Of a stretch of 64,000 nucleotides of DNA, positions 40,528 to 48,918 are shown piece by piece. Within the stretch, counting starts at the first letter, position 1; each line of letters opens with the position of its first letter. A program made the translations under genes and the position numbers. Under the pieces are notes generated by a model. It was not told where the DNA came from. It made no database searches and saw only the letters and a program-made list of their open reading frames with translations. The DNA comes from an uncultured Verrucomicrobiota bacterium (GTDB lineage Bacteria > Verrucomicrobiota > Verrucomicrobiia > Opitutales > Intestinicryptomonadaceae): assembly GCA_949293415.1 (NCBI GenBank), contig CASFDK010000023.1, forward strand, positions 1 through 64,000, in the 5' to 3' direction.

Positions 40528-40572
40528 AAAACCGTAAATAATCCGATACCAACCCCAAACTGTCAAATCTTT

Positions 40573-40628
40573 TATATCTGTGATTGTGCGCGGCATTTTT
40601 TATATCTGTGATTATGCGCGGCAACTAT
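40573..40628. repeat. two tandem 28-bp units upstream of valS
   Basis: TATATCTGTGATTGTGCGCG at 40573 and TATATCTGTGATTATGCGCG at 40601, period 28, differing at one base over the first 20. The second unit runs into the CTATAG palindrome, and its TGTGATNNNNCGCGGC matches the linker of copy B, so the first unit looks like a truncated copy of the same repeat. Confidence 0.6.
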
Positions 40629-43006: not shown

Positions 43007-44503
43007 CTATTTTCTACGGCGATAGGCGGCAAAGCCCAACGCAATCGCGCCGAATATCATTGCATAAGTGGACGGTTCGGGAACTGCGATCGCGTTCAAC
43101 CAGTAGCCGTTTATACCTTCGGTGTACTGACCTGCCACGAACTCGAAATCTTCCGTCGTCAACGTCTTGCCGTCTTCTGTCGTAGCGGAAATAGTCAGCT
43201 GTTTTTCGGCGAGCTCCTTGTTGATAAAGAATATTCTGTTGTCTTCAAAATTCGTTATATTCAGATAATTGCCCGATTCGGCGGTCGAGGACATTCCCTG
43301 AAATAGGAGCGTGGAGGAATCGTCAAGCACTACATCTACGGAATTGTTGTTGCCGCTGTAGTAAAGTTGGTCGAACTTGTTCGAAGCATTTAGGATGAGC
43401 TTTGTATTCTTCGACATAATCAAAAGATTTACGTTTCTCTCTTTTCCCTCCGAAGTTATACTTTTAAAAGCATTCTCTTTGCCAAGGGTAAGTTCCGCGC
43501 CATTGTTGAGCATTATTCTGCCCCTGTACATTGTATCCATATCGCGCAAAGTAATACCGTTACTTCCCGATTCAACAGCGAAAGTTTTACCGATAACCAT
43601 CGCGCCGATAAAGTCGCCCGAAGAGCCTGCGGCAAACGTTGTCGCGCCGTTGAATATTATGCGCCCGCTCGTGCCGAGCTTAACGTCCAAATCCTTTGCG
43701 ACAAACGAACCCGAAACATTCACATCTCCGCCGAAAGTGACAGACGATGTTCCCGTATAGTTGTAGTTTCCCGCCACGTTCAACTGGCTGCCCGAAGCAA
43801 AAGTGGGAGCAACCGTCGTATTGAATGTCGAACCCGCTTCCACATCGAGAACCGTGCCGCTTTTAAATTCCATCGCTCCCGTATTGTTGAAGGTGGAATT
43901 GCCGCTTACATAAACGCCAGAATTCAGTTTCGCGAAACTCGAGCGCGTGACGTTCCAGTTGACGGTCGAGCCGTTGTCCGCCTTCAAACCCGTTCTCTCA
44001 TAATCTAACGCGTTGAGGTATTTACCCTCTACATTGGCGTTCATCGAGAAAGCCAGCCAAGTGGACTGCTCGCCGTTGTTGTGGACAAGCCTGAATTCTT
44101 CGCCCAAGTTTATCTTTGCGGTCGCGGAATTGCCGAGCGAATTTTTGAAAGTTACGCCGCCGATGCGCCACTGCATTTTACCGTTGTTTACGAGCACGTT
44201 CTCGATGACGTCGGACGACGAATTTTTCACGTCGATTGTCAAGCTGTAGGCGATGTCCCAGAGGTCGGGATTGCCTTCGGTTGTAAGCGAGTTTATTGTG
44301 ACCAACCCACCTTCCGAATTGGTTTTAAAGAACGCTTTCGAAGGGGTATCGGCATTCGGCTTCAGGATAACGTCGTAATCGCCAGAGGGGATTGACGTGC
44401 GCCCGCTCTCAGCACCGTCGCCGCCGACCACTTCCATAGGAGTTCCCGCGAACAGCGAAGCGGCGCAAAGCGAGGATAAAACAAATAATGTAGATTTTTT
44501 CAT
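43007..44503 (-). CDS. PEP-CTERM exported protein, tandem paralogue 2
   Basis: 498 residues with the same plan as paralogue 1: signal peptide MKKSTLFVLSSLCAASLFAG, the shared opening TPMEVVGGDGAESGRTSIPS, a beta-helix-like middle, and the terminal VPEPSTYAMIFGAIALGF plus AAYRRRK tag. The shared middle motif FNNTGAMEFKSGTVLDVEAG marks a second conserved core. ATG chosen at 44503 for the MKKST n-region. The mature centre differs by many substitutions and indels, consistent with older duplication followed by diversification of the exposed part. Predicted exosortase substrate on the cell surface. Confidence 0.9.
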   Translation of the reverse strand: MKKSTLFVLSSLCAASLFAGTPMEVVGGDGAESGRTSIPSGDYDVILKPNADTPSKAFFKTNSEGGLVTINSLTTEGNPDLWDIAYSLTIDVKNSSSDVIENVLVNNGKMQWRIGGVTFKNSLGNSATAKINLGEEFRLVHNNGEQSTWLAFSMNANVEGKYLNALDYERTGLKADNGSTVNWNVTRSSFAKLNSGVYVSGNSTFNNTGAMEFKSGTVLDVEAGSTFNTTVAPTFASGSQLNVAGNYNYTGTSSVTFGGDVNVSGSFVAKDLDVKLGTSGRIIFNGATTFAAGSSGDFIGAMVIGKTFAVESGSNGITLRDMDTMYRGRIMLNNGAELTLGKENAFKSITSEGKERNVNLLIMSKNTKLILNASNKFDQLYYSGNNNSVDVVLDDSSTLLFQGMSSTAESGNYLNITNFEDNRIFFINKELAEKQLTISATTEDGKTLTTEDFEFVAGQYTEGINGYWLNAIAVPEPSTYAMIFGAIALGFAAYRRRK

Positions 44504-44552
44504 AAGTACCAATAAGTTCGGGTTCAGATTGTGGGGATGGTAGAGATGGTAA

Positions 44553-45987: not shown

Positions 45988-47289
45988 ATGAACAGAAGGG
46001 AAGCAATTAAATCGACGGCAGTTATCGGCGCGGCGGCTACCCTGCCCCGTTTCGCGTGGGCGGAAGGCAACAGAGCGCAACTTAGAGTGGGTCTTATCGG
46101 CTGCTCAGGCAGAGGCATGGGCGCGGTAAAGAATATGATGGATGCGGCAAAAGGCTCGGTAAAGCTCGTTGCAATCGCGGACCTGTTCCCCGACAGACTC
46201 AAGTTGGCAATGGACAAATTCGCAATGTATCAGGCGAAATTCGATTCGTGCAAGGGCAATTTCGACATCCCCGAAAGCCGCCAATACGCAGGTTGGGACG
46301 CATACAAGCAGCTCATCGACCAAGCCGATGTGGACGTTGTAATAAACGCAACTCCCCCTGTTTTCCGTCCCCTGCACCTGCGCGCGGCGGTCGAAGCGGG
46401 CAAGCATATCTTTGTCGAAAAGCCCGCGTGCGTCGACCCCGTACAGGCTCGCGAACTTTTCGAAATCGCCGATCTCGCCGACAAAAAAGGTCTTACAATC
46501 ATCCCCGGAGTACAGCGCAGATTCCACCCCGGTTATATGGAGGCAATCAAACGACTGCAGGACGGACAAATCGGCGAAATCGTCGCGGTTCAGGCGTACT
46601 GGCTCAACTCGCGCTTCTTCATCCAAGACGGCGGCAAGCTGCGCCTGCAAAATCCCGACCCCATGCAGATTGAATACCAAATCCGCAACTGGTTCATATT
46701 CCGTTGGACTTCGGGCGACTGCTACGTGGAACAGCACGTCCACAACCTCGACGTGGTTCTTTGGGCGCTCGGCAAAGACCCCGTCGAAGTTAACGGGATT
46801 GGCGGCAGACGTTGGGACATCCCCTATCCGCAGTACGGCGACAGATTCAGCCACTTCGGTGTTGATTTCGACTTCGGCAACGGTCTGCACTGCGCAAGCT
46901 ACAGCCGCCGCGAGCAGAAATCGAAAGACTATGTGCTGGAAAGATTTGTCGGCACAAAAGGTATCCTCGAAACGAACGAAAACAATATGCAGCGCATTAC
47001 GGGCGCAAAGCCGTGGGAAGCTCCGAAAGGTCTGCCGCACGCGCTCATCGAAGAACACAGGGTTCTCATCGACAGCGTATTGAACAACAAGAAAATCAAT
47101 ATGCTTCGCGAAATGGTAGACTCGACATTGATGGCGATTGCCGGACGCGAAAGCTGCTACTCGGGCACGAACTTCAAGTACGGATGGATTAAGCAGAAGT
47201 CGCAGCTGTCGCTCGCTCCGAAGGAATGGAAGTTCGGCGTGCACGACATCGATCCCATCCCGCTTCCGGGTGAATACAAACTAAGCTAA
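45988..47289 (+). CDS. exported Gfo/Idh/MocA-family oxidoreductase
   Basis: 433 residues. The signal MNRREAIKSTAVIGAAATLPRFAWA is Tat-like (RR). The Rossmann domain opens LRVGLIGCSGRGMG; VEKPACVDP is the conserved EKP motif; DCYVEQHVHNLDVVLW carries candidate catalytic H252. Probably an NAD(P)-dependent sugar dehydrogenase. AAGGA precedes the ATG by seven bases, and the start lies 43 bases after the Hyi-like gene, so the two form a transcript ending at the terminator at 47346. Pairing of an exported dehydrogenase with an exported isomerase suggests linked steps on one substrate. The longer open frame to 45886 overlaps the previous gene and is rejected. Confidence 0.92.
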   Translation: MNRREAIKSTAVIGAAATLPRFAWAEGNRAQLRVGLIGCSGRGMGAVKNMMDAAKGSVKLVAIADLFPDRLKLAMDKFAMYQAKFDSCKGNFDIPESRQYAGWDAYKQLIDQADVDVVINATPPVFRPLHLRAAVEAGKHIFVEKPACVDPVQARELFEIADLADKKGLTIIPGVQRRFHPGYMEAIKRLQDGQIGEIVAVQAYWLNSRFFIQDGGKLRLQNPDPMQIEYQIRNWFIFRWTSGDCYVEQHVHNLDVVLWALGKDPVEVNGIGGRRWDIPYPQYGDRFSHFGVDFDFGNGLHCASYSRREQKSKDYVLERFVGTKGILETNENNMQRITGAKPWEAPKGLPHALIEEHRVLIDSVLNNKKINMLREMVDSTLMAIAGRESCYSGTNFKYGWIKQKSQLSLAPKEWKFGVHDIDPIPLPGEYKLS

Positions 47290-47345
47290 AAGCTTGCGGA
47301 TTGGCGGGCTGGGAACAAAACCGCCCGTCTTCCGACCGAACAAAT

Positions 47346-47382
47346 ACGCGCAGGGACAACAACCCCCCCCCGCGCGTTTTTT
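47346..47382 (+). terminator. intrinsic terminator with a C9 tract
   Basis: ACGCGC / GCGCGT stem with a loop that holds AGGG and nine consecutive C residues (47363-47371), followed by a T6 run. Confidence 0.75.
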
Positions 47383-47410
47383 GTCGCCGCAAAAAAGACA
47401 AAACCGCAAT

Positions 47411-48520
47411 CTACAGGCTGTCGGATATTTCCAATAAGTCTTTCAGCCAGTACAAAGTTGCCGAACGACCCGCGCCGCTGTCGTAAACCGATACGATTTC
47501 GGCTTTCACCAATTTTTTCAGAAGCGCGTAGACTGTCGCGCTCGATGGATTCGACGAAAGCTTCAGCGAACTCTGCCTGAAAATCGGCTTTGCAATCATG
47601 GCATCCAAAAGCAAAATTGCGTGTTGCGAGGATGTTATGTCGATTATTTTCACCTTCGTGCTCTCGTAGTAGTCCATTATTTTCCTCACTACGGCATAGT
47701 TTCTATCCGCCTGCCACTTGACTGCGTCGAGGAAAAACGAAATCCAGCCAGTCCAGTCGCCGTTTTCGGTAATTTCGCGCAGCGAATCTTTGTAGCGCAT
47801 TTCGTTCTGTCCGAGATATTGGCTTACGTAAAGCGTCGGCTTCGACATCACGCCCTTCTTGTAGAGAAACAGCGGCACGAGCATTCGCCCGAGCCTGCCG
47901 TTGCCGTCGCAAAACGGGTGGATTATCTCGAACTGCGCGTGCATTACGGCGGCTTGGACAAGCGTGTCTTTGTCGTCGGACTCCAGATACTCGACAAGGT
48001 TGTCCATATACTCGGGCACGAGAAGCGGCTCGGGCGGGACGAAACGCGCGTTTTCAATGCCGCCGCTTTTCGAGCCTATGTAATTTTGAACTTCGCGAAT
48101 TTGCCCCGGGTTTTTCGTCGCGCCTCTGGCGTTGTCGAGCAAAAGCTTGTGAAGCTCTTTTATCATATAGAGCGAGACGGGGCGCGCGGCAAGCTCTTCG
48201 GAAGCATAACTAATAGCCTTTCGATAATTTATGACTTCTTGAATGTCGTTTTTGCGCTCGTAGGAATCTTCGTCAACGCCCGCCTCAAACGTCAAGACAT
48301 CGACCGCGTTTACCTGAGTGCCCTCTATTTTGCTCGAAAGGACGGCTTCGTTGCTCAAAATGGGCGACAAAAGCAAATCGGGATTGGGTATTGCATTCAA
48401 AATTCCGTTGAAATTTGCGACGGCGCGGTTGGTTTCCCCGACTTTCGAGATGAGGGAAAGCCAATCGATATTTGCCAATGGAAGCTTTTGCGGAATGTAG
48501 GGTTTCATAAAATCGGGCAT
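47411..48520 (-). CDS. Fic-domain protein with C-terminal winged helix
   Basis: 369 residues. The catalytic motif HPFCDGNGRLGR has H201, and the N-terminal inhibitory motif LSSKIEGT carries E66, the class II arrangement in which the Glu blocks ATP. A C-terminal winged-helix segment (SSATVYALLKKLVKAEIV) suggests DNA binding. Such proteins usually transfer AMP from ATP to a hydroxyl of a target protein. No antitoxin gene adjoins it, and all active-site residues are intact. An alternative ATG lies four codons in. The upstream 398-base gap contains the 71-bp repeats. Confidence 0.93.
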   Translation of the reverse strand: MPDFMKPYIPQKLPLANIDWLSLISKVGETNRAVANFNGILNAIPNPDLLLSPILSNEAVLSSKIEGTQVNAVDVLTFEAGVDEDSYERKNDIQEVINYRKAISYASEELAARPVSLYMIKELHKLLLDNARGATKNPGQIREVQNYIGSKSGGIENARFVPPEPLLVPEYMDNLVEYLESDDKDTLVQAAVMHAQFEIIHPFCDGNGRLGRMLVPLFLYKKGVMSKPTLYVSQYLGQNEMRYKDSLREITENGDWTGWISFFLDAVKWQADRNYAVVRKIMDYYESTKVKIIDITSSQHAILLLDAMIAKPIFRQSSLKLSSNPSSATVYALLKKLVKAEIVSVYDSGAGRSATLYWLKDLLEISDSL

Positions 48521-48581
48521 TTTATAACATCATCGGCATATTTGCGTCAAGCAAAATATGCATTTCATAAATACAAAGACG

Positions 48582-48865
48582 TTTGCGTTTAACGAATACG
48601 TGTTTTGCCAAACGCAAAATTTTTCGCTTTTAATAAAATCAATACAAAACGCTTTGTTTTTAGAAAATTGCCAATTTACTAAAAACAAAATCTTTTACTC
48701 TTATTTCGCTCAAGACAAATTTATTTGTTTTTAAAAAATTGCCGTTTTAGTAAAAACAAACTCAGTTGTTTTTATTTCAATCAACGCAAAGAGGCTTGTT
48801 TTTAGGAAATCGGCTTTTTCTTAAGAACAAAACTTTCTCGGTTTTTTTGCGAAGTATTTGCTTAA
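48582..48865. repeat. four degenerate 71-bp tandem units between fic and lysS
   Basis: Units begin at 48582, 48653, 48724 and 48795, exactly 71 bases apart. Each has an inverted repeat near its start: TTTGCGTTT / AAACGCAAA in unit 1, TTTGTTTTTAG / CTAAAAACAAA in unit 2, TTTGTTTTTA / TAAAAACAAA in unit 3, and TTGTTTTTAG with CTTAAGAACAA in unit 4. TTGCC or its relative lies between the arms. The rest of each unit shares TTAT, TCAA and ACAAA positions. Very AT-rich; a partial fifth unit may follow at 48857. Confidence 0.7.
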
Positions 48866-48918
48866 AAAAGTTGCCTTTTGGCTTTCTTGTGGGAGAATAC
48901 CCTTTTAATTTTATCGAA

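What the first reader, a model, noticed from the sequence alone, without database searches (positions are those of the whole stretch)
48582..48865. Four 71-bp tandem units with covarying inverted repeats between fic and lysS
Starts are exactly 71 bases apart, and each unit has an internal inverted repeat whose arms change together (TTTGCGTTT with AAACGCAAA; TTTGTTTTTAG with CTAAAAACAAA). Sequence between arms keeps a TTGCC-like centre. Degenerate repeats with preserved pairing suggest an old, selected structure: a multi-site operator for fic or lysS, or a structured RNA.
Basis: partly seen in the sequence, partly recalled or inferred. Interest (0 to 1): 0.7.

Follow-up and report, generated by a model that had tools for sequence, protein, structure and literature searches.

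The report
Helix-phased operator array beside a Fic toxin
The repeats are a row of eight short DNA palindromes, alternately 30 and 41 bases apart, in front of an anti-phage (SoFic-type) toxin gene; the same spacing, with different letters, sits beside related toxin genes in other phyla, so it is probably where the toxin binds DNA to control its own gene.

Summary
The 71-bp periodicity is real and well above shuffled controls. Each 71-bp "unit" holds two palindromes, RCAAA-N4-TTTGY. Eight of them (48573-48840) step exactly 41, 30, 41, 30, 41, 30, 41 bp.

The array belongs with fic, not lysS. Relatives have lysS without it; a close relative (91% identical LysS) lacks the 1.58-kb fic+array segment. 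Upstream of independent fic homologues (Verrucomicrobiota, Bacteroidota, Elusimicrobiota, Pseudomonadota, Chloroflexota) the same 30 / 40-41 / 70-71 lattice recurs with different outer letters: exact 30-bp spacing in 13 loci, null 0.14. A three-site DNA pattern run against 2.9 million viral contigs hit twice, both directly upstream of a fic gene. Operator similarity tracks the Fic winged helix (Mantel r=0.46, p=0.0002), not host phylum. The gene matches the anti-phage SoFic model over its full length; the predicted fold has a C-terminal winged helix.

Best explanation: an autoregulatory operator array bound by Fic's own winged helix. Binding is inferred, not shown. RNA and lysS-operator readings are disfavoured. 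Unexplained: the same lattice upstream of phage pqqA genes and of an integrase-like gene.

The parts
48573..48840 (.). Operator array: eight RCAAA-N4-TTTGY palindromes, starts 41,30,41,30,41,30,41 bp apart
   Evidence: periodicity test
48573..48586 (.). Palindrome 1 (10/10), nearest fic
48614..48627 (.). Palindrome 2 (9/10)
48644..48657 (.). Palindrome 3 (10/10)
48685..48698 (.). Palindrome 4 (9/10)
48715..48728 (.). Palindrome 5 (10/10)
48756..48769 (.). Palindrome 6 (9/10)
48786..48799 (.). Palindrome 7 (9/10)
48827..48840 (.). Palindrome 8 (7/10, degenerate), nearest lysS
48521..48550 (-). Candidate fic promoter by eye: -35 TTGACG (48545-48550), 18-bp spacer, -10 TATAAA (48521-48526); the -35 lies inside a further palindrome ATATTTTGC-TTGA-CGCAAATAT
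   Evidence: read; the strict consensus scan did not report it
47411..48520 (-). fic gene, 369 aa, SoFic-type class II Fic with C-terminal winged helix (real start may be 48508)
   Evidence: Pfam Fic_N and Fic; PADLOC SoFic E=1.4e-106; AF2 model pLDDT 90.3; Foldseek to 3eqx/3zcn TM 0.82-0.86
47283..48865 (.). Segment (fic + array) absent from relative G005, which has a spacer of about 240 bp there instead
48871..48899 (+). lysS core promoter (TTGCCT-17-AGAATA) with similar sequence in relatives, just outside the array

Best explanation
The array is a multi-site operator through which the adjacent SoFic-type Fic protein controls its own transcription. Each RCAAA-N4-TTTGY palindrome would be the site for one pair of winged helices (two half-sites of about 11 bp, TTTG plus lineage-specific outer bases). 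Sites spaced 30, 41 and 71 bp are close to 3, 4 and 7 helical turns (at about 10.1-10.2 bp per turn), so bound dimers would lie on one face of the DNA, touch their neighbours and build a cooperative complex beside the fic promoter. That would keep a toxic AMP-transferase at low level and release it when the complex is lost, for example by DNA damage, titration or phage takeover. Shown here: array geometry, its recurrence beside fic, its covariation with the Fic protein, and a predicted winged helix. Inferred: binding, cooperativity, repression rather than activation, and the trigger.
For: Exact alternating lattice in the window. Independent fic loci: 30-bp spacing in 13 loci (null mean 0.14, max 1 in 200 shuffle sets), 40/41 in 14 (null 0.4, max 3), 70/71 in 12 (null 0.3, max 3), using a core defined on the window only. 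Viral-contig scan with three sites: 2 hits, both upstream of fic. Exact two-site pattern: 0 of 398 Pseudomonadota genomes; control spacing 35 in viral contigs 3 hits, all inside reading frames. In the own genome the two-site pattern occurs only in this array. Operator similarity correlates with Fic winged-helix similarity (r=0.46, p=0.0002; r=0.33, p=0.008 after removing catalytic-domain distance) but not with host phylum (r=-0.08, p=0.81). Arrays sit upstream of fic copies with a non-coding upstream region (20 of 21). Winged helix predicted, recognition helix about 327-339. Precedent: CccR, a Fic-HTH protein, represses its own gene by binding an inverted repeat (PMC9755527).
Against: No binding or expression data. 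Many fic homologues with a non-coding upstream region show no array with this core (42 loci); some have other half-sites (L083, L170), others may have none. In four loci the array is 3' of fic (L107, L110, L176, L260). The same lattice occurs upstream of phage pqqA genes and of an integrase-like gene in a genome where no Fic_N gene was found, so a different regulator could own it. The operator-protein correlation rests on 17 loci with hand-set site rules and is also significant for the catalytic domain.
Confidence: 0.72

Rival explanations
1. The array is bound by a separate DNA-binding protein (host or mobile-element regulator) that controls several kinds of horizontally moving genes, of which fic is one.
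For: Same core and 30/40 lattice upstream of about 26 phage pqqA-like genes, an integrase-like gene in G425 where no Fic_N was found, and near an RHH gene (L211).
Against: Within the own genome the pattern occurs only beside fic; operator letters follow the Fic protein and not the host phylum; many distant hosts would each need the same extra regulator.
Confidence: 0.15
2. The array encodes a repeat RNA that neutralises the Fic toxin, as in type III toxin-antitoxin systems, or another structured RNA.
For: Tandem repeats just upstream of a toxin gene; fold z-scores -2.8.
Against: Equal folding of both strands; units only partly alike (26 of 71 columns invariant), unlike processed antitoxin RNA repeats; no Rfam hit; no terminator found inside the array; helix-phased spacing conserved while sequence changes; arrays also found 3' of fic.
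Confidence: 0.06
3. The array is an operator for lysS (lysyl-tRNA synthetase).
For: It ends about 31 bp upstream of the lysS -35 box.
Against: Twelve relatives of the same genus have lysS without the array; it came or went with fic.
Confidence: 0.03
4. Recombination or mobility sequence: the repeats are ends or attachment sites that move the fic cassette.
For: fic+array is absent as a block in G005; similar arrays sit upstream of an integrase-like gene in G425.
Against: No integrase or transposase seen next to fic here; array on one side only; no copies elsewhere in the genome; lattice is specific in spacing, not identical in sequence.
Confidence: 0.04

Closest known systems
CccR of Yersinia pseudotuberculosis (Fic-HTH autorepressor, PMC9755527)
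   Same: Class of protein (Fic domain plus C-terminal HTH), dimer, binds inverted repeats in its own promoter and represses it
   Different: CccR protects one 46-bp site AGATAATCAT-N26-ATGATAATCT; here eight palindromes with N4 centres at alternating 30/41 bp; CccR is a secreted effector and only a distant relative
SoFic (SO_4266 of Shewanella oneidensis, PDB 3eqx/3zcn; EcSofic anti-phage system, PMC12249575)
   Same: Same domain order, inhibitory motif SxxxEG, catalytic motif, fold over full length (TM 0.82-0.86), PADLOC SoFic model
   Different: Only 23% identical in the structural alignment; an operator array was not found described; DNA binding by SoFic had not been demonstrated according to PMC10628234
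CbFic2 of Coxiella burnetii (PMC10628234)
   Same: Class II Fic whose C-terminal HTH binds DNA with nanomolar affinity and changes the enzyme's state
   Different: Tested only with random DNA; no operator known; different N-terminal domain (DUF4172)
NrdR boxes of ribonucleotide reductase genes (recalled, not tested)
   Same: Paired palindromes spaced by whole helical turns for a cooperative regulator
   Different: Different core sequence and regulator

Membership tests
SoFic anti-phage Fic | Full-length match to the PADLOC SoFic model | tested here: met
   PDLC03963 E=1.4e-106, residues 5-365 of 369
SoFic anti-phage Fic | NCBIfam SoFic equivalog cut-off (550 bits) | tested here: not met
   NF046030 148.6 bits: SoFic-like, not a strict equivalog
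SoFic anti-phage Fic | Inhibitory helix SxxxEG and catalytic HPFxDGNGR | tested here: met
   E66, G67 and H201-R209 in alignment A1
SoFic anti-phage Fic | C-terminal winged helix | tested here: met
   AF2 model and Foldseek to 3eqx
SoFic anti-phage Fic | Protection against phage | not testable with these tools
   needs an experiment
Autorepressed Fic-HTH (CccR-like) | Inverted repeats at its own promoter | tested here: met
Autorepressed Fic-HTH (CccR-like) | Protein binds them and represses | not testable with these tools
   needs EMSA, footprint, reporter
CRISPR array | Near-identical repeats with unrelated spacers and cas genes | tested here: not met
   repeats diverged, spacers resemble each other; Fic on one side and LysS on the other, no cas gene identified next to the array (cas not searched for elsewhere)
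Type III toxin-antitoxin RNA | Near-identical RNA repeats followed by a terminator, toxin downstream | tested here: not met
   26 of 71 columns invariant; no terminator inside the array
Any Rfam family | Score at or above gathering threshold | tested here: not met

The most novel reading that the evidence does not exclude
SoFic uses its operator lattice as the infection sensor: the toxin is held inactive or scarce on a helix-phased DNA scaffold, and invading phage DNA (some of which carries the same lattice, as upstream of phage pqqA with the half-site TTTGTATGTAATA also seen at Endomicrobium fic genes) competes for or disrupts the complex and so triggers, or blunts, the defence.
Probability: 0.1. 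Interest if true: 0.85.

Novelty: new variant of a known kind. Interest (0 to 1): 0.62.

Why it matters
How SoFic is kept quiet and then switched on is stated to be unknown, and its C-terminal domain is known only to matter for toxicity (PMC12249575). A conserved, helix-phased operator lattice at its gene in several phyla gives that domain a specific, testable job and provides a sequence signature for finding such genes and their regulation. It also offers a natural series of protein-operator pairs for working out winged-helix recognition.

Tried and rejected
DNA similarity of the array in phage and plasmid records: none. DNA search in 133 relatives gave only short AT-rich matches. Fic DNA from two Pseudomonadota homologues in E. 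coli genomes: none, so the experimentally studied EcSofic promoter was not examined. Fic protein in viral contigs by peptide patterns: none. CRISPR, attC-like and lysS-leader readings were considered and dropped. Core-agnostic dyad search also showed 20 and 50 bp spacings, which are other multiples of about 10 bp; not pursued statistically.

Full report
Observation. The 71-bp repeat between fic (47411-48520, minus) and lysS (from 48919, plus) is real. Tandem Repeats Finder gives period 71; self-match at lag 71 is 0.61 against at most 0.45 in shuffles, and the best lag-71 segment scores 44.5 against at most 18. The palindrome at 48653-48689 has 17 of 18 complementary positions, the best in the window.

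Anatomy. A scan for RCAAA-N4-TTTGY shows eight palindromes starting at 48573, 48614, 48644, 48685, 48715, 48756, 48786 and 48827: steps of 41 and 30 bp in exact alternation. Seven score at least 9 of 10 against 0.64 expected. I take the N4-centred pair as the basic site because its gap is constant in the loci scanned while the distances between sites vary (30, 40, 41, with 20 and 50 in a core-agnostic scan); since N4 is built into the scan, this is an argument and not a proof. The array lies between a candidate fic promoter (by eye; the strict scan found none) and the lysS promoter, whose core is recognisable in relatives.

It belongs to fic. In the genus, 13 of 14 genomes gave a LysS match, and the upstream regions read from the other twelve carry no array. 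The relative G005 (91% LysS identity) has the same upstream oxidoreductase next to lysS, with a spacer of about 240 bp in place of the 1.58-kb fic+array segment (47283-48865). The own genome has the two-site pattern nowhere else.

Homologues. Fic proteins were found in relatives, named genome contigs, Pseudomonadota and plasmids. Upstream of many of them are arrays with other letters but the same spacing: the second genus member (63% Fic identity), Akkermansia glycaniphila, Endomicrobium, a Rickettsiales bacterium, Chloroflexi, alphaproteobacterial prophages and a Riemerella anatipestifer plasmid. With the core fixed from the window, 83 other fic loci gave exact 30-bp spacing in 13 loci (null mean 0.14, max 1), 40/41 in 14 (0.4, max 3) and 70/71 in 12 (0.3, max 3). 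These are near 3, 4 and 7 turns of DNA if the repeat is about 10.1-10.2 bp.

Specificity. A three-site DNA pattern with no protein information, run against 2.9 million viral contigs, gave two hits; both lie directly upstream of a 383-aa fic gene. They are close relatives of each other. The exact two-site pattern is absent from 398 Pseudomonadota genomes. With one mismatch in 388 Verrucomicrobiota genomes it finds fic loci, one integrase-like family and scattered hits inside reading frames.

Protein. The Fic has Fic_N and Fic domains, a full-length SoFic match in PADLOC, but falls short of the stricter NCBIfam equivalog. The AF2 model (pLDDT 90) ends in a winged helix and matches SoFic structures over its whole length. 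Operator similarity among 17 loci follows the winged helix (r=0.46, p=0.0002; partial r=0.33, p=0.008 given the catalytic part) but not host phylum (r=-0.08, p=0.81). Site choice was partly manual and the catalytic part also correlates (0.42), so this supports coinheritance firmly and direct recognition moderately.

Mechanism. Known biology: CccR, another Fic-HTH protein, represses its own gene by binding an inverted repeat through its HTH domain (PMC9755527); CbFic2 binds DNA through its HTH and changes activity (PMC10628234); SoFic is an abortive-infection toxin whose activation is unexplained (PMC12249575). Together with the data above, autoregulation by cooperative binding to the array is the best reading. 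Whether it represses or activates, and what releases it, is inference.

Limits. Of 86 fic loci with enough upstream sequence, 21 have an array with this core; 23 of the other 65 have coding sequence upstream. Some others use different half-sites (L083, L170, L074). In four loci the array is 3' of fic, before hsdS, a RhuM-like gene or another gene. The same lattice stands upstream of phage pqqA-like genes and of an integrase-like gene in a genome where no Fic_N gene was found (86% complete). A second family of regulators with the same site geometry, or an unseen Fic, could explain these. The literature search covered open-access papers only.

RNA reading. Both strands fold about equally better than shuffles, as DNA palindromes must; there is no Rfam match, and what is conserved is spacing in base pairs. 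I give it 6%.

Noticed in passing
L177, L178, L181, L183, L187 and about 20 further viral loci: Freshwater-type phage contigs carry the same 30/40 palindrome lattice 41-117 bp from a pqqA-like gene (MWTTPSATEMRFGFEVTMYVMNK); half-site TTTGTATGTAATA equals that of Endomicrobium fic arrays. Phage PqqA itself is known from Lake Baikal (PMC7678222).
   Followed up: partly
L108, L117, L119 (G425): Three loci with TTATCACAAAG palindromes at 30/41 bp; two lie upstream of an IntI-like tyrosine recombinase, in a genome where no Fic_N gene was found.
   Followed up: partly
L107 1431-1545, L110 1440-1580, L176 2706-2780, L260 570-623: Arrays placed 3' of a fic gene, between it and hsdS, a RhuM-like gene or another gene.
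   Followed up: partly
L070 (G054): A fic copy truncated at its 5' part and with a stop inside, still preceded by an intact array.
   Followed up: no
L083, L170, L074: Other Fic subfamilies have arrays with quite different half-sites (CTAAAATAAGA, AAATTAAAGAA, TTATACTAAACGC) but again steps near 40-41 bp.
   Followed up: partly
window 48508-48520: Homologues start at the second ATG (MKPYIPQKLP), and the candidate -10 box abuts the first ATG, so fic probably starts at 48508 with little or no leader.
   Followed up: no
window 40570-40623: A 28-bp unit (TTTTATATCTGTGATTATGCGCGGCATT) repeated 1.9 times at 96% match.
   Followed up: no
window 43007-44512, minus: Protein ending VPEPSTYAMIFGAIALGFAAYRRRK, a PEP-CTERM-type sorting signal.
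   Followed up: no
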